In this document: in pieces, positions 841-9,415 of the stretch
How positions within the stretch are numbered: position 1 is the stretch's first letter
How the letters are laid out: every line of letters begins with the position of its first letter
DNA from: Gammaproteobacteria bacterium
GTDB lineage: Bacteria; Pseudomonadota; Gammaproteobacteria; Xanthomonadales; Xanthomonadaceae
Direction of reading: 5' to 3'
DNA: 10,680 nt
NCBI GenBank assembly: GCA_025360985.1
Contig: JANYBA010000063.1
Location: forward strand, 1-10,680
The notes under the pieces: model-generated
What the model was told of the DNA's origin: nothing
Seen by the model: the letters and a program-made list of their open reading frames with translations, nothing else
The model's database searches: none
Made by a program: the position numbers and the translations under genes

Positions 841-933
841 CGGTGACAGAGTCCGGCGGGAGCGGGCGGTTAGGGTGTCATAGTTGCGGGTCTCGGCCTA
901 TCCATGAGAAGTACCCACTGCCCAGGAGTCGCA
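841..933. other. Divergent intergenic spacer upstream of the sigma/kinase operon
   Basis: This 93-bp gap separates two divergent genes and must hold the 5' signals of both. The sequence TCATAG near 878-883 could serve as a plus-strand -10, but no convincing -35 lies at the right distance. The only firm element is the ribosome binding site AGGAG at 924-928, five bases before the ATG at 934. If the sigma factor is autoregulated, its recognition sequence would be expected here. Confidence 0.3.
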
Positions 934-1974
934 ATGAATCCCGTCTTCCCATGTTTCCGCCTTACCGCGCTGACGCTCGCCTGTGCAATTTCCTTACAGG
1001 CCCATGCGCAAGCGATGACCGAATCGGGCGTGCCCGCCGCGCTCACCCAAGCCGCCGACCACCAGCGCGCCGACTATCGCCAGCAGCAATGGCAACGATT
1101 GGCCGCCAAGTCCGATCGCGACAGCTTGATCGCCGCGGTGCTGCTCGGCATGCCCTACGAATTGGGCACGGCGGACGAATCGCAACCGCAACCGCTCGCC
1201 GGCCACGACAAAGTCGAGCAACGTCTGGCGCAGGCCTACGGCAAGGATCCGCTGGTCGCATTCACCCTGGCCCTGTCCTGCCAGATCCCCGGCGCGGCCT
1301 GCACGGATTCTTCCCGCTACGATGCGCTGGTTCGCCTCGCGCCGGACAACGCCGTGCACTGGCTGATGCTGCCCAACGGCGGCGCGCCCAACGATGCGCA
1401 GCTACATGCGGCGGCGAAGGCCACGCAGGCGGACACGCATCTTCGGGAAATGCTGGCCATCGTTCGTACGGCCTTGGCCGGACAAAAAGCGTTGTCGGTG
1501 CCAGAGGGCGTCGATGCCGGCGACTTGGCCTTGTTGCTGCGTCGCGATACCACCGACCAGGTACCGCTGCCCCTCTTCCGCGCCGTGGTTCGCCTATGCA
1601 AGACGCCGGCGGTTGCACAACGCGAGGAATGCATCGAAGTCGGCCGACGCCTGGAAGCCGACCGCAGCGGCAGCATTCTTTCGCGCATGATCGGCAGCAC
1701 CATGGTGCGCCGGCTGATCAAGGGCACGCCGGAAGAAACGGCGGCCAAGCAGTTGCGCCGTGAGTACGTCTGGATGAGCGAGCAGTTGGACGGCAGCCCG
1801 CGTCCGTATCTGGAGCGCGTGCAAGCCGACGCCGCCTCTCTAGGAGAATGGACCGCCTGGCAGCGAGCCACCGATCGACTGGTCGGGCGCCACACCCCGC
1901 CAGCGGATTGGCTACCGAAGAACCCGCAATCGTTGTTGTTATCCGAGGAACGCAGCCCAGCCCCGGCCAAGTAG
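934..1974 (+). CDS. Secreted protein homologous to the extracytoplasmic domain of the downstream kinase
   Basis: A 346-residue protein. I chose the ATG at 934 because AGGAG (924-928) sits five bases upstream and the product then begins with a compact signal peptide (R9, a hydrophobic core to L21, likely cleavage at A-H-A25). The in-frame ATG at 904 adds ten residues that spoil this. The mature protein is collinear with residues about 410-726 of the kinase encoded at 2680-4860. Shared blocks include DYRQ-x-Q...SLIAA (48-68), a C-x6-C pair (C116/C123), NAVxW (139-143), S247-T265 (15 of 19 identical), YVWxSEQ (278-284), GEWxAWQR (304-311) and a WxPxNxQxLLLxExR tail (326-340). A second Cys pair, C222/C233, also has a counterpart. 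Conserved cysteines suit disulfides in the periplasm. I recognise no named family. By position and homology it may be a soluble ligand, decoy or partner of the kinase sensor; this is inference. First gene of the operon, 28 bp before the sigma gene. Confidence 0.88.
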   Translation: MNPVFPCFRLTALTLACAISLQAHAQAMTESGVPAALTQAADHQRADYRQQQWQRLAAKSDRDSLIAAVLLGMPYELGTADESQPQPLAGHDKVEQRLAQAYGKDPLVAFTLALSCQIPGAACTDSSRYDALVRLAPDNAVHWLMLPNGGAPNDAQLHAAAKATQADTHLREMLAIVRTALAGQKALSVPEGVDAGDLALLLRRDTTDQVPLPLFRAVVRLCKTPAVAQREECIEVGRRLEADRSGSILSRMIGSTMVRRLIKGTPEETAAKQLRREYVWMSEQLDGSPRPYLERVQADAASLGEWTAWQRATDRLVGRHTPPADWLPKNPQSLLLSEERSPAPAK

Positions 1975-2002
1975 ACTGCCGTGACCGCGAGGTCATCGGT
2001 CT

Positions 2003-2683
2003 ATGGCAGTGTTCCCTACCACCCGCTGGAGTTTGATTCGGGCCAGCGAACGCTCGGACGCCGACGTAGCCGCGGCCTGGGGCGAACTGGTGCGCGGCTA
2101 CCGGCCGGCCATCGTCGGTTTCTTTCGCCGCAGCGCCCTGGCCAGCGAGGCCGAGGATCAGGCACAGGAGTTCCTGCTGCGTTCGATGCGCGATGGCTGG
2201 TGGGCACGCGCCGACCCGGAGGTCGGCAGTTTTCGCCGCTTCCTGCTGGTGTTGTTGAGGCGTTTCCTGGCGATGCAGCGCGAAGCCGGCCATCGCCGTT
2301 TCGAGGTCAACGCCGTCGCGGCGGAAGAAGTGGCTGGCGAAGATTCTCCGGAAAGAAGCTTCGACCTCGAATTCGCCCTGTGCCTGACGCGCAACGCCAT
2401 GACCCAGTTGCGCGCCGAGTACGAAGCCTCCGATCGCGGCGAATTGTTCGACGCCCTGCAACCCTGGTTGGCCGAAGCACCGGAACATGGCGAGCTGGCC
2501 GCGCTCGGCACCCGGCTGGAGGTCGCGCCGAACACGCTGGCGGTGCAGCTCAAGCGCTTGCGCCTGCGTTTTCAGAAAGCGGTGCGCGCGGTCTTGTTGG
2601 AATTGTGCGTGGACGCTGAGCATGCGTCCGCGGATTTGGATGCCCTGCGCGCCGTGCTTGGCGCGAACGGAGCGGGCGCATGA
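2003..2683 (+). CDS. ECF-type RNA polymerase sigma factor, kinase-associated class
   Basis: A 226-residue sigma-70-family protein. The start at 2003 is supported by GAGGT at 1989-1993, nine bases upstream. Residues 5-12 (P-T-T-R-W-S-L-I) are the N-terminal signature of an ECF-like class common in Planctomycetes and usually encoded beside a Ser/Thr kinase. Region 2 spans about 22-100 with the A-E-D-Q-A-Q-E-F segment at 50-57; relatives usually have a Thr where A54 stands. Region 4 lies at about 125-200, with a helix-turn-helix around G163-R189 (E-L-A-x-L-G-x-R-L-E-V-A-P-N-T-L). The stop overlaps the kinase start as ATGA (2680-2683), so the two are probably translationally coupled. No anti-sigma factor gene is visible. 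Regulation by the kinase is therefore the natural hypothesis, as shown for the ECF43 sigma/kinase pair EcfP/PknT in Vibrio parahaemolyticus. Which residue might be phosphorylated here is unknown. Confidence 0.88.
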   Translation: MAVFPTTRWSLIRASERSDADVAAAWGELVRGYRPAIVGFFRRSALASEAEDQAQEFLLRSMRDGWWARADPEVGSFRRFLLVLLRRFLAMQREAGHRRFEVNAVAAEEVAGEDSPERSFDLEFALCLTRNAMTQLRAEYEASDRGELFDALQPWLAEAPEHGELAALGTRLEVAPNTLAVQLKRLRLRFQKAVRAVLLELCVDAEHASADLDALRAVLGANGAGA

Positions 2684-4860
2684 TTCTTCCCGGGCCCGAT
2701 CTGCTGGAGGTGGCGCGCCTGGGCTTTTCCCAGCCGGCCTCGAGCGAGGCGATGCTCTGGGAAAATCTCGACCTCGACGATCCCGAGGATCGCCGCTTCG
2801 GCGATTACGAATTGCTCGAGCGGATCGGCCGCGGCGGCATGGGCGTGGTGTTCCGCGCCCGGCAATTGAGTCTGAATCGCGAGGTCGCGGTGAAATTCAT
2901 CGTCGGCGGGCTGGCCGCCGATCCGCATGCGGTCGCCCGCTTCCTGGACGAAGCGCGCGCCGCCGCGCGGCTGAATCATCCGAACATCGTGCCGGTGTTC
3001 GAGGTCGGCACGGTCGACGGCATGCATTTCTTCTCGATGCCGCTGCTGCGCGGCCAGACCCTGGCGCAGCGCATTGCCAATGCACGAATGCCGACCAAGG
3101 AATGCGTCGACTTGTTGCTCAAGCTCGGCGCCGCGGTCGAGTACGCGCATAGCCTGGGTCTGCTGCATCTCGACCTGAAACCGGCGAATGTCTTGTTCGA
3201 CGAACATGGCCAGCCGCTGATAGGCGACTTCGGCCTGGCCCGGCAAATGGACGCAGCCGGCGGCGTCGACGCGCAGGAAGTGTCGGGCACGCTGGAATAC
3301 ATGGCGCCGGAACAGCGCGCGGACGGTTCGCACCGATTGACCACGCGCACCGACGTCCTTGCGCTCGGCGCGATCCTGCACGAACTGCTGGCCGGCAATG
3401 CGCCGATGGATCCGGATCTCGCGGCCATTTGCCGCACGTGCCTTCAAGCAAGCCCGGAGAATCGTTACCCGACGGTTGCGGAGCTCAACGCCGACCTGGC
3501 GCGATTCCGCGATGGCAACGACGTCAGCGTGCGCGCTCCCGGCTGGTGGCAACGCGGCGTGCGCAGTCTCCGCCGACATCCGGCGATTGCGCTAGCCACC
3601 GCGGCGGCGCTGGTCATGTTGCTGATCGGCCTGGCGGCGACCAGTTGGCAATGGCGACAGGCCGATGTGGCGCGCGCACGAGCGCAACAACTCGCCGGCC
3701 TGATGGCGGCGGCCTTTCCGACCGGCGAACAGCTGCGCGACGAACAACTGCCCAGCGCCCGCAATGCAGTGGCCTGGCTCAAGCAGCACACGGCCAACGA
3801 TCCGACCGCGCAACGCGCCGTGCTCACCGCCTTCCGGCAAGCGCTGGTCGCCGAACACAAAGGCGACGCGGTGACGGCGCTGTTCACCGAAATCGTCGAC
3901 CAGTTCGGCGAGGACTACCGGCAGACGCAGGTCGAGCGCCTGGCGAAGAAAGGCGACCGCGACAGCCTGATCGCGGCGGCCTTGATCGGCCTGCCGCGTG
4001 GCGCGATGGTCGCGAGCGCCGCGCACGCCGCCGTCTTGCGGCGCCTGTTCGAGCAACATCGCGACGATGAACTCGCGCTCTACGTCGTGGCGCTGGCCTG
4101 CCATGTCCAGTCGCAACCCTGTCTGCATCCGGAATACTTCGCTCGCCTGACCGAACGCTTCCCCGGTAATGCCGTGAACTGGGTGCTGGTTCCGAGCGGC
4201 GCCAGGCTGAGCGATCGCCAGGTGGCCGCGCACGTCCTGAATGCGGCCGGTGCGCATGCGTTCGACGACCGTGGCGCGGCATTCGCCGGACTGTTGCGCA
4301 AGGCCTTGCGCGACCAGCCGGTGCCGGAGTCGATCCTGGAGCCGATGCAAGCCGTGCTGAGCGAATCCGAGGTGGCGCCGCGCTTGCGCCGCAATGCCGT
4401 CGACAGCGCGCCGCTGCCCATGCATCGCGATGTCATGATTGTGTGCAAGCCGGCCAGTGTCGCCGCGCTTCGGATCGGCGGATTGCGCGATGCCTGCGGC
4501 GCCTTCGCGCGCAAGGGCATGCACTCGCCGGGCGCATCGATCCTGGCGCGGATGATCGGAAGCGCAATGTTGCGACGGCTCTACAAGGGCACGGCGCTGG
4601 CAGCCGAGGCCATCGAATACCGTCGCCAATACGTTTGGCTGAGCGAACAGGTCTGGCCGGATTTCGCCAGCGAACCCACCAACGCCGAGCAGATCCAGCA
4701 GGACGTCGCCCGGTACGGCGAATGGGAGGCCTGGCAACGCCAGGCCGATCGCATGGGCAAGCCACGCAGGCCGCCGCCGGGATGGCAGCCGGCGAATACG
4801 CAGACGCTGTTGCTGGCCGAGGATCGGAAGCCGGCGGCGCCGGCACCTTCGGCGAAATAG
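2680..4860 (+). CDS. Transmembrane Ser/Thr protein kinase with a large extracytoplasmic C-terminal domain
   Basis: A 726-residue Hanks-type kinase, third gene of the operon, overlapping the sigma gene by 4 bp. The kinase domain is at about 43-280: glycine loop I-G-R-G-G-M-G (49-55), VAVK with K72, C-helix E91, catalytic loop H163-L-D165-L-K-P-A-N170, DFG at 183-185, APE at 209-211 and helix-F D225. Two features are odd. The usual HRD arginine is Leu, a 'non-RD' kinase. The stretch between the LLAG segment (236-239) and DLAAICRTC (246-254) is only a few residues, where related kinases have roughly 30, so helix G and the substrate-docking region look cut away. The domain end (DLAAIC...RYPTVAELNADLARF) matches planctomycete-type kinases. 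One membrane helix lies at about 302-321, followed by some 400 residues that should be periplasmic. Residues 410-726 are homologous to the secreted protein at 934-1974, including cysteines C474/C481 and C589/C606. The likely target is the neighbouring sigma factor (inference). Confidence 0.92.
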   Translation: MILPGPDLLEVARLGFSQPASSEAMLWENLDLDDPEDRRFGDYELLERIGRGGMGVVFRARQLSLNREVAVKFIVGGLAADPHAVARFLDEARAAARLNHPNIVPVFEVGTVDGMHFFSMPLLRGQTLAQRIANARMPTKECVDLLLKLGAAVEYAHSLGLLHLDLKPANVLFDEHGQPLIGDFGLARQMDAAGGVDAQEVSGTLEYMAPEQRADGSHRLTTRTDVLALGAILHELLAGNAPMDPDLAAICRTCLQASPENRYPTVAELNADLARFRDGNDVSVRAPGWWQRGVRSLRRHPAIALATAAALVMLLIGLAATSWQWRQADVARARAQQLAGLMAAAFPTGEQLRDEQLPSARNAVAWLKQHTANDPTAQRAVLTAFRQALVAEHKGDAVTALFTEIVDQFGEDYRQTQVERLAKKGDRDSLIAAALIGLPRGAMVASAAHAAVLRRLFEQHRDDELALYVVALACHVQSQPCLHPEYFARLTERFPGNAVNWVLVPSGARLSDRQVAAHVLNAAGAHAFDDRGAAFAGLLRKALRDQPVPESILEPMQAVLSESEVAPRLRRNAVDSAPLPMHRDVMIVCKPASVAALRIGGLRDACGAFARKGMHSPGASILARMIGSAMLRRLYKGTALAAEAIEYRRQYVWLSEQVWPDFASEPTNAEQIQQDVARYGEWEAWQRQADRMGKPRRPPPGWQPANTQTLLLAEDRKPAAPAPSAK

Positions 4861-4870
4861 TTGGCGCGCC
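4858..4870 (-). pseudogene. Probable 3' remnant of the split resident tRNA-Arg(CCG)
   Basis: The 13 bases TAGTTGGCGCGCC are identical to 9195-9207, which is the 3' end (encoded CCA, discriminator, five acceptor bases) and 3' flank of the intact tRNA-Arg. TGG-C-GCGCC can also pair with the 5' acceptor strand GCGCCCG kept by the tRNA fragment at 9363-9406. The T-arm and variable loop that should follow are missing, and the sequence passes directly into the 15-bp anticodon-arm repeat at 4870. The first three bases are also the kinase stop codon. The element is short, so a chance match cannot be excluded on its own, but its position beside the repeat argues against chance. Confidence 0.55.
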
Positions 4871-4884
4871 TGCCTTCGGAGGGC
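4870..4884. repeat. Left 15-bp direct repeat, putative att site (anticodon-arm sequence)
   Basis: CTGCCTTCGGAGGGC here is identical to 9363-9377. Read on the minus strand it is the tRNA-Arg(CCG) anticodon arm: a 7-base loop CTCCGAA flanked by GCC and GGC. This is the layout of a tyrosine-recombinase core site with a 7-bp overlap in the anticodon loop. Confidence 0.7.
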
Positions 4885-5140
4885 GGTTGTCAGGCAATGT
4901 CCAAATCATCGCACTTGGGTGCGAATCGGCGATATTCCGCGTGGAGAGTGCGTTTTCTCGACTGAAATTCCGCCGTGAAGCAGACGCTCGCAGCAGACTT
5001 TTGCAGGTTGAAATCGAACAATTGGCGCAATGCTTGGCACGAAGCCTTTTCCCCGTCGGCCATGCATCTGAGTGCTGCCCTCTCGATGAGTTGAACCCTC
5101 GAATGAGCAACCGCTTCAAGTTGCCGCGACCAAGACCAAT
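4885..5140. other. Non-coding left end of the island
   Basis: This stretch between the left repeat and the hipBA control region holds no convincing gene. Visible structure is a small hairpin CGCAC-TTGG-GTGCG at 4910-4923. The sequence becomes AT-richer than the flanking kinase gene toward 5140. TCAGGC lies eight bases inside the left repeat (4891-4896), and its inverse GCCTGA lies just inside the right repeat near 9342-9347. This is a weak hint of inverted recombinase-binding sites. No T-run follows the hairpin, so I do not call a terminator for the kinase operon. Confidence 0.35.
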
Positions 5141-5148
5141 TTGGCTGT

Positions 5149-5194
5149 GTATCGAATACTAGACATTACATAAGCAATGTAGTATTTTCCATAC
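5149..5194 (+). promoter_or_regulatory. Probable hipBA operator/promoter region
   Basis: Three small palindromes are packed into 46 AT-rich bases ending at the hipB start: GTAT-N3-ATAC (5149-5159), ACATT-N8-AATGT (5163-5180) and GTAT-N5-ATAC (5182-5194). The last ends on the base before the ATG. The N8 spacing resembles the E. coli HipB operator layout (TATCC-N8-GGATA), although the half-site differs. TAGTAT at 5180-5185 could be a -10 box, which would put the transcript start almost at the ATG. No Shine-Dalgarno is present, which fits a leaderless hipB message. Binding by HipB would then cover the promoter (inference). Confidence 0.5.
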
Positions 5195-5452
5195 ATGGAC
5201 GAAGTGACCCTGCTTGCTCGATTTGGCACCGCAATGCGGCGACTACGGCAGGCGCGTGGCCTGACGCAAGCGGCGGTGGCCGCACGCGCCGGAGTTCCGC
5301 GTCTGAAGGTAATCCAGGCTGAGCGAGGCGATGGTTCAGTCTCGGTCGGTGCCTATGCCCAGATCGCCAGCGCGCTGGGCGCCGAGTTCACCTTGCTGCC
5401 CGCCAAGCGCCCGACGCTCGACGAAGTCCGGGAGCTGCTGGCCCATGGCTGA
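5195..5452 (+). CDS. hipB: HipB-like antitoxin, XRE-family helix-turn-helix
   Basis: An 85-residue protein. The Xre/Cro-type helix-turn-helix spans about residues 9-65: F-G-T-A-M-R-R-L-R-Q-A-R-G-L-T-Q opens it, followed by A-A-V-A-A-R-A-G-V and the recognition helix near R36-K38. The position of the stop and the downstream hipA make this the antitoxin and autorepressor of a HipBA module. It would bind the palindromes just upstream and hold HipA inactive. No ribosome binding site precedes the ATG, so a leaderless transcript is likely. The short Leu-rich tail (T73-L83) may contact HipA. The hipA start lies inside the last codons of this gene (8-base overlap), giving tight coupling. Confidence 0.85.
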   Translation: MDEVTLLARFGTAMRRLRQARGLTQAAVAARAGVPRLKVIQAERGDGSVSVGAYAQIASALGAEFTLLPAKRPTLDEVRELLAHG

Positions 5453-6683
5453 GTTGGCTGGCGTCCGACATGTCCGTGTTTCGACCCCGCAAGGAGACAG
5501 CGGCGTGCTGTCCTTCGAGGATGGACGCTATTTATTTACATACGCGCTGGACGCTCCTCAGTCAGCAGACATCAGTCTGCTGATGCCGCATCGGGCGGAT
5601 CAGTACGCCAGCCCGACCTTGCACCCGATCTTCCAGATGAATCTGCCGGAAGGCTACGTCCTGGAGCAGTTGCGCAATCGCCTCGCCAAGGCGACGCCAC
5701 TCGATCCCATGCTGCTCTTGGCCCTGACCGGCCGCGAGGCTGCAATCGGACGTGTACGGGTTGAAGCACCGGAGCTGGAGGCCGCCCTCGGCGAGGGCCG
5801 ACGCACAGGCAAGGGCGAAAACCTGACAAGCATCCTCGCGTGGGATGGTGCCGAGGATCTTTTCAACGCGTTGGCCCAGCGCTACCTCTTCCGCACCGGC
5901 GTTTCCGGAGTACAGCCGAAAGTGCTGGTGCCGGAGCTGCCGGAATCGGCTGCTGCGGGCAAGGCCTCGCTGACGACATCCGACTTGATCGTGAAGAGTG
6001 GCGGCGCGGAGTTCCCGGGTTTGGCCGTGAACGAATACGTCTGCATGTCGGCGGCAAAGGCGGCCGGGTTGCCGGTGCCCGAGTTCCACCTCTCGGACAA
6101 CCACCAGCTGTTCGTGATGCGCCGCTTCGATCGCCTGCCCGATGCCAGCTCGTTGGGCTTCGAGGATATGGCGGCCCTGATGGGCAAGGGCACGACAGAG
6201 AAATACGACAGCAGCTACGAACGAGTAGCTCGCTGTGTCGAACTGTTCTGTGCCGAGGACCACCACGTCGCCGGACTCGCGCAACTGTTTGACCAGGTGG
6301 CCCTGTCCTGCATCCTCGGCAACGGCGATGCGCACCTGAAGAATTTCGGCGTGCTGTACTCCGACCCGAGTCAAAACGATGTCCGGCTGGCCCCGGCCTA
6401 CGACATCGTCAACACCACGGCTTATATTCGCGACGATCAGTTGGCCCTGACCCTGGGCGGGTCCAGGAGCCTGTTCGCGTCCCGGTTGCATTTGTTTGAG
6501 TTCGCCGGCCGGTGTCGCATTGCCGAACCCGCCGTCCGGATAACCCGATTGCTTGAGGCTGTCGAAAGTGTGCTCGGACACGAGCGGAATTTGCTTGCGA
6601 CTGTTCCCGACGTGCGCACAGCGCTCAAGGAATCGTTCGATGGGTTTGCCAGTCTATTTGAGCGCAAACATGCTTCGAAGTAA
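5445..6683 (+). CDS. hipA: HipA-family serine/threonine kinase toxin
   Basis: A 412-residue protein starting at ATG 5445. The frame is open upstream to 5331, but that part overlaps hipB and has no HipA similarity. GGGAG at 5430-5434, ten bases before, supports the chosen start. The N-terminal HipA_N-type subdomain covers about 8-115. Kinase motifs are intact: the S154-G-V-Q-P-K159 loop (equivalent to the autophosphorylated serine loop of E. coli HipA), K184 in LIVK, G292-N-G-D295-A-H-L-K-N300 with catalytic D295 and metal-binding N300, and the D320 metal site in Y-D-I-V. Length and residue spacing match full-length HipA, so it looks functional. E. coli HipA phosphorylates glutamyl-tRNA synthetase and causes growth arrest; this paralogue's target is not evident. 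It ends 33 bp from the convergent primase-helicase gene. Confidence 0.9.
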   Translation: MAELAGVRHVRVSTPQGDSGVLSFEDGRYLFTYALDAPQSADISLLMPHRADQYASPTLHPIFQMNLPEGYVLEQLRNRLAKATPLDPMLLLALTGREAAIGRVRVEAPELEAALGEGRRTGKGENLTSILAWDGAEDLFNALAQRYLFRTGVSGVQPKVLVPELPESAAAGKASLTTSDLIVKSGGAEFPGLAVNEYVCMSAAKAAGLPVPEFHLSDNHQLFVMRRFDRLPDASSLGFEDMAALMGKGTTEKYDSSYERVARCVELFCAEDHHVAGLAQLFDQVALSCILGNGDAHLKNFGVLYSDPSQNDVRLAPAYDIVNTTAYIRDDQLALTLGGSRSLFASRLHLFEFAGRCRIAEPAVRITRLLEAVESVLGHERNLLATVPDVRTALKESFDGFASLFERKHASK

Positions 6684-6716
6684 CTTGGCGCGATCGATTG
6701 TTTATTCACGCTAGAT

Positions 6717-9083
6717 TTAGGCGCTGTTTGAATCAAGTACCTGATATCCCATCGATCGATAGCCGCGCTGCCGCTTTTCCCACATCCGAACGAGTGCCGG
6801 GTGGCCGGAATCGACAAAGTCGAGGATCCAAACGTCGACTTTGCCCGCATGTTCGCGGTGCAATCGCCCGGCATACTGCTGAAGCGTGCCCTTCCATGAG
6901 ATCGGCATGGCCAACACCAGCGTGTCGAGTGGCGGATGGTCGAAGCCCTCGCCGACCAGCTTGCCAGTGGCGAGCAGGACGCGGGGCGCGTCGGGAGGCA
7001 GCGCGCTCAGTTCATCAATTTGTGTGCCGCGTTTTTTCTTCGACATGCGGCCGTGCAAGGTGAACAAATGAGGGACTCTGCCATGGAGCAGCGCCTCGAT
7101 GTCGACCAAATGGTCGAAACGCTCGGTCAGCACCAATACCTTTCGCCCCTGTTCAATGACGCGCTCGATCTGATCGACGATGGCCGCCGTCCGGACAGGG
7201 TCGGACGCAAGGTGAAGAAAGACATTCTGGATGCCCGCGGTATCGGGCAGGGCGATCTTATCCGGCCTGAATTGGGGAATTACTTCCATGAGGGACGGTG
7301 CGCTCTCTGGGCTCGCGGCGGTGTGCCGTATCGGGCCGCATTGCATAAAGATGATCGGGTGTTGGCCGTCTCGACGCAGGGGTGTGGCGGTCAAGCCATG
7401 CACGAACCTGGCCCGGATGCGTTTGAGGATTGCCTCAAACGAGATCGCGGACAAGTGATGGCATTCATCGACGATGACCTGCCCATAGTTCTCGACCAGC
7501 GCGCTGATCTCACCCTTTTGAGAGAGCGATTGCATCACCGCGACATCGATAAGACCCGTGGGCTTGGCCTTGCCGCCACCGATGACTCCGATAACGCCCT
7601 TGCCGACGCCCAGGAATGACTGCAGGCGTTCCTGCCACTGGCGGAGAAGTTCAGTACGATGAACCAGAACCAGCGTGTTTACGCCACGGCGGGCGATCAT
7701 GGCCGCAGCGGTCACTGTCTTGCCGAAAGCCGTGGGCGCGCACAGAACGCCGTTATCGCACGCAAGCAAGGCCGCCAGCGCGGCCTCTTGATCGGATCTC
7801 AGCGATCCGTGAAAGCTGACGTCCAGAGGCGCACCTGCGAAGCGCTCATCCCGGATGACGCAAGCGATCCCGTTGCTTCGCAGCAGGGATGCCGCCGCGT
7901 CCAGACAGCCACGAGGCAGCGCGATGTGCTTGGGATGGTTTTCGGCGCAACCAATGACCCGGGGCTTGTCCCACACGGGGAAGCGCATGGCCTGAGCCTT
8001 GTAGAAATCCGGGTTCTGAAAGGCCGCCAGGCGGACCAGGCGATTGGCCAACGGCGGAGTCAACTCGCTCTTCTCGAAATAGAGCAGGTTGGCCAGAGTC
8101 AGGTTGACTGAAGCGGGTAGGTCACCCGGCACTTTTCCTGCCGACGGTGTTCGACGCTGCCACGGCTTCGACTCGTCTTCGTCGCCGGCTTCGGCGACAT
8201 CCAGCGGGTGCGCGCCTCCCGTGGCAAGCTGAAGCGCGGGCTCCAGCTGGCTGGCGGTCATAGGTTGGACCGAGGCGAGAAATGCCCATTGGTCCGGCCA
8301 AGGCTTGAATGCGTCGTCCACGAACACGCTGCGGTCCTGGGCGCGCGGCTGCTTCTGAAGCGGAAGCGCAATCAGGTTGCCAAAGCCGCCCTTCGGCATG
8401 GTGTCCTGGTTCGGAAAGAGTCGATCATAGGACGACAGGCGCAGTTGAAGTGTTCGCGCGCAGGCATGGCTGATGATCGCCGTTCCAAGGCGCCGGGCCT
8501 CCCGGGCCGGCACCGCTGAATTGAAGAATATCCAAGCGTGAGCACCTTTTCCCGAACGCGAGACCTCGAGCGCCACCGGCACATTCAGTGCGCGACAGGA
8601 CTGGACGAACGCCGCGGCGTCCTTGCGCCATTGGGCCTCATCGAAATCCACTGCCAGGAACCGGCAGGTGTCGTCGGTCAGCAGCGGGTAGACGCCGATG
8701 ACGTGGCGGCCCACGAGGTGGTCGAAGATCACCTGGTCGGTCAGCGGCAGGAATTTTCGGTTCGGACACTCCGAGCACTTGATGCGCGGCTTCTCGCAGA
8801 CGCCCGGCTTCCACTCGTTGGCGCAGGCGGGGGCGTATCCGGATTTGCCGGCCTTGTTTTCCCACCGGGTGGGATAAATATCCGTTCGACCGCTGAATAG
8901 GCGGCGAAATATTTCGACCTTGGCTTTGGAACTCAGAGCTGAGGTCTCAGGTGCAGAGACGTTGGTGCCCTGTGCAGTGGCTGGCTTTCCCGCCCGCCAC
9001 TCAATAGCGTGTGCGTCCAGAAGAGCCGCCAGGCGGGCATTTTCCGCCCGTAGCTGTCTCACGGAATCAGTTTCGGTAGTCAT
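6717..9083 (-). CDS. TOTE conflict-system type primase fused to a superfamily 2 helicase
   Basis: A 788-residue protein from ATG 9083, with GGA eight bases upstream. An upstream TTG at 9131 is in frame but adds a low-complexity leader. Residues 7-24 form a short Leu-rich coiled coil. Four cysteines, C87, C96, C103 and C106, form a likely zinc site. An archaeo-eukaryotic primase domain follows: catalytic D146/D148 in A-V-D-F-D-E, S177-G-K-G-A-H182, and a G-G-F-G-N-L-I-A-L-P-L-Q strand at 232-243. The helicase has Walker A P-T-A-F-G-K-T (450-456), D539-E-C-H, T565-A-T-P, motif V G-E-G-F-D-H (711-716) and motif VI Q736-Y-A-G-R-L-H-R. This fusion is typical of proteins proposed to act in prokaryotic conflict systems. 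No phospholipase-D-type nuclease motif is seen, so an effector nuclease may be absent or supplied elsewhere. All catalytic residues appear intact. It is convergent with hipA. Confidence 0.88.
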   Translation of the reverse strand: MTTETDSVRQLRAENARLAALLDAHAIEWRAGKPATAQGTNVSAPETSALSSKAKVEIFRRLFSGRTDIYPTRWENKAGKSGYAPACANEWKPGVCEKPRIKCSECPNRKFLPLTDQVIFDHLVGRHVIGVYPLLTDDTCRFLAVDFDEAQWRKDAAAFVQSCRALNVPVALEVSRSGKGAHAWIFFNSAVPAREARRLGTAIISHACARTLQLRLSSYDRLFPNQDTMPKGGFGNLIALPLQKQPRAQDRSVFVDDAFKPWPDQWAFLASVQPMTASQLEPALQLATGGAHPLDVAEAGDEDESKPWQRRTPSAGKVPGDLPASVNLTLANLLYFEKSELTPPLANRLVRLAAFQNPDFYKAQAMRFPVWDKPRVIGCAENHPKHIALPRGCLDAAASLLRSNGIACVIRDERFAGAPLDVSFHGSLRSDQEAALAALLACDNGVLCAPTAFGKTVTAAAMIARRGVNTLVLVHRTELLRQWQERLQSFLGVGKGVIGVIGGGKAKPTGLIDVAVMQSLSQKGEISALVENYGQVIVDECHHLSAISFEAILKRIRARFVHGLTATPLRRDGQHPIIFMQCGPIRHTAASPESAPSLMEVIPQFRPDKIALPDTAGIQNVFLHLASDPVRTAAIVDQIERVIEQGRKVLVLTERFDHLVDIEALLHGRVPHLFTLHGRMSKKKRGTQIDELSALPPDAPRVLLATGKLVGEGFDHPPLDTLVLAMPISWKGTLQQYAGRLHREHAGKVDVWILDFVDSGHPALVRMWEKRQRGYRSMGYQVLDSNSA

Positions 9084-9161
9084 CGCCGAATTCCATGATG
9101 AATCGGGGCGGGAACCGGAGCCCGAAGGCAATACTCATTTTTCCGACTTCGATTCGCCGAT

Positions 9162-9191
9162 GGGCACGGTGGCGGGCACGAAAAGGGCACG
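9162..9191. repeat. Three phased GGGCACG direct repeats beside the tRNA
   Basis: GGGCACG occurs at 9162-9168, 9174-9180 and 9185-9191, with start-to-start spacing of 12 and 11 bp, about one helical turn. They lie just past the 3' end of the intact tRNA-Arg. Short phased direct repeats beside a tRNA are typical of arm-type binding sites for tyrosine integrases, but no integrase is encoded here. They could also affect expression of the primase-helicase, whose ATG is about 80 bases away. Confidence 0.45.
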
Positions 9192-9198
9192 AGGTAGT

Positions 9199-9275
9199 TG
9201 GCGCGCCCGACAGGAGTCGAACCTGTGACCCCCACCTTCGGAGGGTGGTGCTCTATCCAGCTGAGCTACGAGCGC
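9199..9275 (-). tRNA. tRNA-Arg(CCG), complete, CCA encoded
   Basis: Folded from the minus strand. The acceptor stem GCGCTCG pairs with CGGGCGC, with two G-T wobbles, discriminator G and encoded CCA. The D-stem is GCTC/GAGC. The anticodon stem CCACC/GGTGG closes loop CTCCGAA, giving anticodon CCG (Arg). The variable loop is GGGTC. The T-stem ACAGG/CCTGT closes loop TTCGACT. All arms are perfect and the length is 77, so it should be functional. Compared with the fragment at 9363-9406 it differs at 7 of 44 positions, including compensated pairs in the anticodon stem, so it is a diverged gene and not a fresh duplicate. It lies inside the island and may replace the split resident tRNA. Confidence 0.95.
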
Positions 9276-9362
9276 GTTCTAAAGCCTTTCTACAGGTTTC
9301 GCCGGGCTGAATTGAGAAAAGGCCCTTCGTGACACTTTACCCGCCTGATTGTCCCCTGAGTA
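9276..9362. other. Spacer between intact tRNA-Arg and the tRNA fragment
   Basis: These 87 bases hold no gene. Read on the minus strand, they are the 5' flank of the intact tRNA. I see no strong promoter of its own here. Transcription may enter from the promoter in front of the tRNA fragment. Confidence 0.3.
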
Positions 9363-9377
9363 CTGCCTTCGGAGGGC
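9363..9377. repeat. Right 15-bp direct repeat, putative att site
   Basis: CTGCCTTCGGAGGGC is identical to 4870-4884. On the minus strand it is tRNA nucleotides 29-43, the anticodon loop plus the 3' side of its stem. The tRNA match stops exactly at the inner edge of the repeat, which is where a recombination junction would lie. Confidence 0.7.
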
Positions 9378-9406
9378 AATACTCTATCCAGCTGAGCTAC
9401 GGGCGC
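9363..9406 (-). pseudogene. 5' fragment of the resident tRNA-Arg(CCG) gene
   Basis: Reading from 9406 on the minus strand gives a 5' acceptor strand GCGCCCG, TA, the D-arm (GCTC, AGCTGGATA, GAGT) and an anticodon arm TTGCC-CTCCGAA-GGCAG with anticodon CCG. After nucleotide 43 the sequence no longer resembles a tRNA: there is no T-arm and no 3' acceptor strand. It is therefore a truncated gene, about 44 of 76-77 nucleotides. The cut coincides with the edge of the 15-bp repeat shared with 4870-4884. A TAGAAT box lies just upstream, so this was probably the resident gene with its native promoter. Confidence 0.85.
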
Positions 9407-9415
9407 GTGGCCGGC

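What the first reader, a model, noticed from the sequence alone, without database searches (positions are those of the whole stretch)
934..4860. Sigma factor/kinase operon that also encodes a secreted copy of the kinase's sensor domain
The first gene encodes an exported protein collinear with the whole periplasmic half of the kinase. It shares a 15-of-19 identical block (247-265 against 620-638), the YVWxSEQ and GEWxAWQR blocks, the tail, and two cysteine pairs. ECF-sigma plus kinase pairs are known, but a free soluble paralogue of the receptor domain in the same operon suggests a decoy, co-receptor or ligand that tunes the kinase. I do not know of a described system with this arrangement.
Basis: partly seen in the sequence, partly recalled or inferred. 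Interest (0 to 1): 0.75.

Follow-up and report, generated by a model that had tools for sequence, protein, structure and literature searches.

The report
Kinase operon with freed sensor copy
A bacterial signalling operon encodes a membrane kinase, its partner gene-switching factor and an exported free copy of the kinase's own outside sensor, and a conserved promoter suggests that the switch mainly turns on this very operon, so the free copy is probably made as feedback or as the response itself.

Summary
The exported protein SEC (934-1974) and the outer part of the kinase (residues 398-719) are homologous almost end to end: 38% identity, E=5e-57; profile against profile E=1.5e-88. Predicted folds agree helix by helix, apart from two short extra helices. 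SEC lacks the 75 membrane-proximal residues. The order SEC-sigma-kinase was read in 7 genomes. SEC is one clade (100/98) and more distant kinases fall outside, so the sensor was probably freed from a kinase once.

New: a promoter-like element, TGTCATNG-N13-CNYAT, lies ahead of SEC in all 7 loci: 74% identity between loci against about 30% in flanks. In three relatives where no SEC was seen it lies ahead of the kinase instead. Among 55 loose matches in five genomes, the operon is the only target recurring in more than two. The sigma factor therefore probably drives its own operon, SEC first. Best reading: SEC is an autoinduced soluble receptor domain that feeds back on the signal, or is the response. 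Against pure kinase tuning, genome G025 keeps SEC without this sigma or kinase. Function is untested.

The parts
876..901 (+). Predicted operon promoter TGTCAT-A-GTT-N11-CCTAT, ending 32 nt before the SEC start
   Evidence: Same element in 7 of 7 SEC-sigma-kinase loci; mean pairwise identity 0.744 against 0.29-0.31 for flanking 30-nt blocks; the held-out locus G820 scored above all 5000 background windows
934..1974 (+). SEC: exported soluble paralogue of the kinase sensor domain, 346 aa, signal peptide about residues 1-26
   Evidence: model pLDDT 89.3
2003..2683 (+). Sigma-70-like factor of the ECF kind, 226 aa, acidic EAEDQAQE in region 2.2
   Evidence: Sigma70_r2 17.8 bits (cutoff 24); TIGR02937 21.8 bits (cutoff 42.9); 8 of 9 family members match TIGR02937 at E<=1e-3
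2680..4860 (+). Transmembrane Hanks-type Ser/Thr kinase, 726 aa
   Evidence: Pkinase 2.7e-39, residues 43-244; catalytic motifs located
2806..3411 (+). Kinase catalytic domain, residues 43-244
   Evidence: GRGGMGVV at residue 50, VAVKF 69, HLDLKPAN 163, DFGLAR 183
3583..3639 (+). Transmembrane helix, residues about 302-320
   Evidence: Highest 19-residue hydropathy window 2.49; next best elsewhere 1.65
3649..3870 (+). Membrane-proximal helical segment, residues 324-397, absent from SEC
   Evidence: Helices 2-22, 27-47 and 52-68 of the ectodomain model
3871..4836 (+). Sensor domain shared with SEC, residues 398-719

Best explanation
This is a self-contained receptor-kinase/sigma circuit in which the receptor's sensor domain was duplicated once and freed as an exported protein. 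Shown here by sequence: near full-length homology, a single origin of SEC, co-inheritance with sigma and kinase, and a conserved promoter-like element ahead of SEC that is the main recurrent site at the stringency used. Inferred: the periplasmic domain of the kinase senses a signal in the envelope; the kinase activates the sigma factor by phosphorylation; the sigma factor transcribes its own operon from this promoter, SEC first; SEC is exported and, having the receptor's fold, binds the same ligand or the receptor itself. It thereby damps or ends signalling by sequestration, and may also protect the cell from what is sensed. Negative feedback is my favoured sign.
For: Homology and fold. Export: 116 of 116 SEC proteins of 300 aa or more have a hydrophobic N-terminal stretch and 112 an AxA-like site, by a crude script. 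Linkage: 7 loci read; 25 SEC/kinase cluster pairs of identical longest-contig length, one of them the G051 contig. Single origin: SEC, 33 rows, 100/98, with five more distant kinase rows outside. SEC and kinase-ectodomain distances mirror each other, r=0.895 over 30 pairs, permutation maximum 0.317. Promoter. Of 55 loose matches in five genomes, all examined, only the five operon sites share downstream genes across more than two genomes.
Against: G025 keeps an intact SEC with no relative of this sigma at E<=1e-10, no kinase carrying the ectodomain at E<=1e-5, and no promoter match near SEC, so SEC can exist without this kinase. No ligand, no binding and no sign of feedback is shown. The mirror correlation is expected of any co-inherited operon, and SEC diverges slightly faster (median difference 0.541 against 0.460). 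The sigma keeps the acidic region 2.2 motif, so the ECF43 phosphorylation switch need not apply. The -10 part fits the CGT described for ECF promoters, but the -35 part lacks the usual AAC (PMC8103513 passages). Loose matches number 55 against 28 for the reversed control, and two sites found in single genomes (matrix scores 26.7 and 22.9) score like the G820 operon site (23.6), so further targets are not excluded. 10 of 116 SEC proteins have a lipobox-like stretch by a loose pattern, so some may be membrane-anchored.
Confidence: 0.5

Rival explanations
1. SEC is the effector: an exported protein with its own job (for example binding or neutralising an envelope-active compound), turned on by the pathway. 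Its likeness to the sensor merely reflects a shared ligand or shared origin, and it does not regulate the kinase.
For: SEC is the first gene behind the main recurrent promoter element. SEC persists alone in G025. Distant standalone relatives exist in many genomes of the order, with no relative of this sigma or kinase domain found in the flanks fetched for part of them.
Against: SEC sits with kinase and sigma in the 7 other loci read. SEC has no match in Pfam, NCBIfam or PADLOC.
Confidence: 0.27
2. SEC is a co-receptor or hetero-dimer partner needed to activate the kinase, bringing ligand to it.
For: 43 columns carry the same residue in over 90% of both groups. A TPR-like helical fold suits protein contacts. 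Co-inheritance.
Against: Loci without SEC nearby keep sigma and a kinase with the same domain, so such kinases need not have SEC. SEC lies first under the apparently autoregulated promoter, as expected of a product rather than a constitutive partner.
Confidence: 0.18
3. SEC is a bystander duplicate without a role in the circuit.
For: Sequence alone shows no function.
Against: Four cysteines invariant in 122 SEC rows and a conserved promoter element ahead of SEC.
Confidence: 0.05

Closest known systems
Xanthomonas citri EcfK/PknS and Vibrio parahaemolyticus EcfP/PknT (ECF43 sigma plus Hanks kinase; PMC13147305: abstract, sections 4 and 11, passages; PMC8999054: passages)
   Same: Sigma gene beside a transmembrane kinase; the C-terminal periplasmic region of PknS has three TPRs, here it is TPR-like. 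None of the three genes here matches an anti-sigma model.
   Different: This sigma keeps an acidic EAED in region 2.2 where ECF43 has QTTA-like residues. The ectodomain has no Pfam TPR match. An exported copy of the sensor heads the operon; no such third gene appears in the parts I read.
Other STPK-linked ECF groups (ECF59, 61, 62, 217, 283; PMC8999054 passages)
   Same: Sigma plus kinase; this review says groups other than ECF43 keep a DAED-like motif. Another review (PMC8103513 passages) says STPK-regulated ECFs replace it, with a serine in ECF59 and ECF60.
   Different: Group membership was not tested: no group models were at hand. 3 of 9 family members match the Rhodopirellula/Verrucomicrobium sigma model TIGR02989.
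BlaR1 and class D beta-lactamases (PMC5957439 passages)
   Same: A receptor whose outer sensor is structurally homologous to a free protein that handles the same ligand; that a lactamase is the pathway's output is recalled.
   Different: Different fold, receptor type and repressor logic. Shared ligand is unknown here.
Brassica SRK and SLG (recalled, no call)
   Same: A receptor kinase and a secreted paralogue of its ectodomain encoded side by side.
   Different: Plant system, unrelated domains.

Membership tests
Hanks-type transmembrane Ser/Thr kinase | Kinase fold with P-loop, catalytic Lys, HxD and DFG | tested here: met
   Pfam Pkinase 2.7e-39; motifs located. HxD is HLD in 75 of 82 family proteins, HRD in 1, motif not found in 6, some of which are fragments
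Hanks-type transmembrane Ser/Thr kinase | One membrane helix separating kinase and outer domain | tested here: met
   Single strong hydropathy peak at 302-320; next best elsewhere 1.65
ECF sigma factor (sigma-70 superfamily) | Match above curated cutoff | tested here: inconclusive
   Window protein below cutoff in Pfam (17.8 against 24) and NCBIfam (21.8 against 42.9); 8 of 9 relatives match TIGR02937 at E<=1e-3
ECF43 | Region 2.2 lacks the acidic DAED motif (QTTA-like) | tested here: not met
   EAEDQAQE at residue 49; all 9 aligned relatives keep acidic residues there; definition from PMC13147305 and PMC8999054 passages
STPK-coupled sigma system | Sigma gene adjacent to a kinase gene | tested here: met
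STPK-coupled sigma system | Kinase phosphorylates sigma | not testable with these tools
   Needs biochemistry; T7, S61 and T129 are invariant in 9 of 9 relatives
TPR proteins | Recognisable TPR motifs or fold | tested here: inconclusive
Receptor with homologous exported output (BlaR1-like logic) | Exported protein homologous to the sensor and under the receptor's control | tested here: inconclusive
   Homology met; control predicted from the promoter element only; shared ligand not testable

The most novel reading that the evidence does not exclude
A signalling circuit whose sole dedicated output is a free copy of its own sensor: the kinase and sigma factor exist to make a soluble receptor domain, which arose once when the ectodomain was cut loose from a kinase and took over the promoter that had driven that kinase. 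A receptor that manufactures its own decoy or scavenger would be a bacterial counterpart of soluble receptors.
Probability: 0.3. Interest if true: 0.8.

Novelty: new variant of a known kind. Interest (0 to 1): 0.62.

Why it matters
Signals and regulation of sigma-linked bacterial receptor kinases are largely unknown. Here nature supplies the sensor domain as a soluble protein and, by inference, the sigma factor's promoter, so ligand fishing, binding and reporter tests become direct. If SEC sequesters the signal or blocks the receptor, this would be a bacterial soluble-receptor feedback loop.

Tried and rejected
Chance similarity: rejected.

Repeated independent duplications: not supported. SEC is one side of a branch in both trees (support 94; 100/98). 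Kinase monophyly is weak (56/0), so SEC may branch within the kinases, which suits an origin from a kinase.

Match to a known fold family: only TPR-like rows over about 110 residues; Foldseek gave no match at E<=0.001 for SEC. A missing match does not show a new fold.

PDB sequence search with SEC: 16 antibody and kelch rows at E 0.45-0.98.

Wider regulon: all 55 loose sites in five genomes were compared. A first comparison covered 30 and was flawed: in 9 loci the script picked another position than the matched site; one search replaces it. Besides the five operon sites, two pairs recur in two genomes each (L151/L197 and L198/L199); both lie inside long reading frames on the opposite strand, with matrix scores 0.8, 1.3, 13.1 and 13.1. 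Sites L102 and L154 were read in sequence and lie in or against reading frames. Region L174 was fetched but not analysed.

The genome-contig scan with A1 confirmed 3 loci among 67 candidate stretches; its two peptide patterns were narrow.

Novelty in print: searches. No listed title or abstract start describes a sigma/kinase operon with a secreted sensor copy; beyond the parts of the four papers cited I read none of them. Most subscription papers are not held.

Rows dropped: 8 short proteins from the large tree; P0036 and P0162 have no contig length and were left out; the SEC list showed 120 of 128 hits.

Full report
WHAT IS THERE. Three same-strand genes: SEC (934-1974), a sigma-70-like factor (2003-2683) and a kinase (2680-4860), with gaps of 28 and -4 nt. 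The kinase has a Pkinase domain at residues 43-244 (E=2.7e-39), intact catalytic motifs, one membrane helix at about 302-320 and a long C-terminal part. SEC has no Pfam or NCBIfam match. The window is one contig of a fragmented assembly, 401 contigs and 81.6% complete. Names given by sources to relatives include Xanthomonadaceae, Lysobacteraceae, Dokdonella, Rudaea and Tahibacter.

DISTRIBUTION. In 398 genomes of the order, 88 match the SEC profile at E<=1e-5. The profile also finds the kinase domain copy. Six genomes, the window's included, have a SEC-type match at E<=1e-100, and the same six have the only kinase-frame matches below 1e-70, about 3 kb downstream. The order SEC-sigma-kinase was read in the window and in G051, G070, G331, G360, G364 and G820. 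In the genus of G070, 5 of 8 genomes have both genes, one match (G418) is cut by a contig end, and two have none. In 398 genomes of the phylum three match at E<=1e-10: the window genome, G070, and one weakly. The sigma profile gives its six best hits (E<=3.6e-101) in those same six genomes; this is partly by construction, because all six are rows of that profile. Sigma/kinase loci with the ectodomain but no SEC nearby are G012, G115 and G121, G072 (the ectodomain match lies in an overlapping frame) and G823 with two loci. G272 and G128 are cut by contig ends; in G272, 65% complete, no SEC was found. Among database proteins found with the kinase ectodomain (82), 24 of 55 on contigs of 5 kb or more share an exact longest-contig length with a SEC cluster, 25 pairs in all; controls shifted by 1-50 nt gave 0-2. 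One pair is the G051 contig. The 20 unpaired among 38 on contigs of 10 kb or more do not show absence, because only the longest contig per cluster and 120 of 128 SEC hits were listed.

ORIGIN. A tree of 215 rows puts 122 SEC and 81 kinase ectodomains on two sides of a branch (support 94). A careful tree of 68 rows gives SEC 100/98, with five more distant kinase ectodomains outside both groups (G012, G115, G121 without SEC nearby; G272, G128 at contig ends); kinase monophyly is weak at 56/0. SEC therefore arose once, most simply from a kinase ectodomain. Distances of 30 SEC/kinase pairs correlate at r=0.895, permutation maximum 0.317. This shows co-inheritance, not contact.

PROMOTER (new). Upstream of SEC all seven loci carry TGTCATNG, then 13 nt, then CNYAT (window 876-901), ending 32-48 nt before the start codon that I judge best by its ribosome site. 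Mean pairwise identity is 0.744 in the 26 nt and 0.29-0.31 in flanking 30-nt blocks. Six loci were used to find it. The seventh, G820, scored above all 5000 background windows, as did sites just ahead of the kinase in G115, G272 and G072. G128 follows with P 0.0012 and 0.004; G823a, G061, G121 and G012 are weak (P 0.01-0.04), and G823b has none. The G061 kinase has no match to the shared ectodomain. In the SEC-bearing loci tested (G070, G364, G331, G360, window) no such site lies ahead of the kinase; G051 and G820 were not tested for this. The element thus moved from kinase to SEC, or was copied with it; that step is inference. With up to one mismatch, seven genomes hold 9 sites: 6 ahead of SEC and 3 elsewhere, against 3 for the reversed control. 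Over 398 genomes the exact pattern gives 43 sites in 37 genomes: 6 at this system (5 ahead of SEC, 1 ahead of the G115 kinase) and 37 elsewhere, against 30 control sites by my count of the table. With up to two mismatches five genomes of the G070 genus give 55 sites against 28 controls. I compared the downstream genes of all 55: the five operon sites match each other; two other pairs recur in two genomes each but lie inside long opposite-strand frames; the rest do not recur. Two single-genome sites score 26.7 and 22.9, near the G820 operon site at 23.6. The -10 part resembles the CGT described for ECF promoters; the -35 part lacks the usual AAC (PMC8103513 passages, which also state that about 55% of ECFs are predicted to be autoregulated). 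That the operon's own sigma reads this promoter is inferred.

HOW IT PROBABLY WORKS. Shown: homology, one origin, linkage, conserved element. Inferred from family knowledge: outer-domain sensing, kinase activity and sigma activation by phosphorylation, as reported for EcfK/PknS and EcfP/PknT (PMC13147305, PMC8999054). The sigma keeps EAED in region 2.2, so it is not ECF43 by that hallmark and the switch may lie elsewhere; T7, S61 and T129 are invariant in nine relatives. Once active, the sigma would transcribe SEC, itself and the kinase. SEC, exported and with the receptor's fold and cysteines, would bind the same ligand or the receptor. I favour sequestration and negative feedback. The effector reading is close behind, because G025 keeps SEC with no sigma relative, no kinase with this ectodomain and no promoter match.

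COMPARISON AND NOVELTY. Sigma-kinase pairs are known, and PknS also has a TPR-rich outer region (PMC13147305). What is new is the third gene, its single origin and the promoter logic. In the parts of papers read and the search listings I found no such arrangement. I rate it a new variant of a known kind.

Noticed in passing
window 4853-9408: Possible integrative element between the kinase stop and tRNA-Arg (9199-9275, minus): direct repeats 4853-4870/9190-9207 (89%), 4870-4884/9363-9377 (100%), and a tRNA-end copy at 9366-9408 (88%); it carries HTH plus HipA genes and a primase-helicase.
   Followed up: partly
window 6717-9131 (minus): TOTE-type primase-helicase, AEP-TOTE E=3.1e-103.
   Followed up: no
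L081-L091, L032, L036 and others: Distant standalone relatives of SEC, mostly 340-450 aa, in many genomes of the order, without a relative of this sigma or kinase domain in the flanks fetched; a few are longer (614-740 aa).
   Followed up: partly
G000:C212:2548-5188: A second, different locus in the window's genome with two sigma genes in tandem and a kinase; tandem sigma pairs recur in other genomes of the order.
   Followed up: no
window 3166-3174 (kinase residues 163-165): The kinase family is of the non-RD type: HLD in 75 of 82 proteins.
   Followed up: no
L024:7115-8164 (G025): An intact SEC gene in a genome where no relative of this sigma and no kinase bearing its domain was found.
   Followed up: yes
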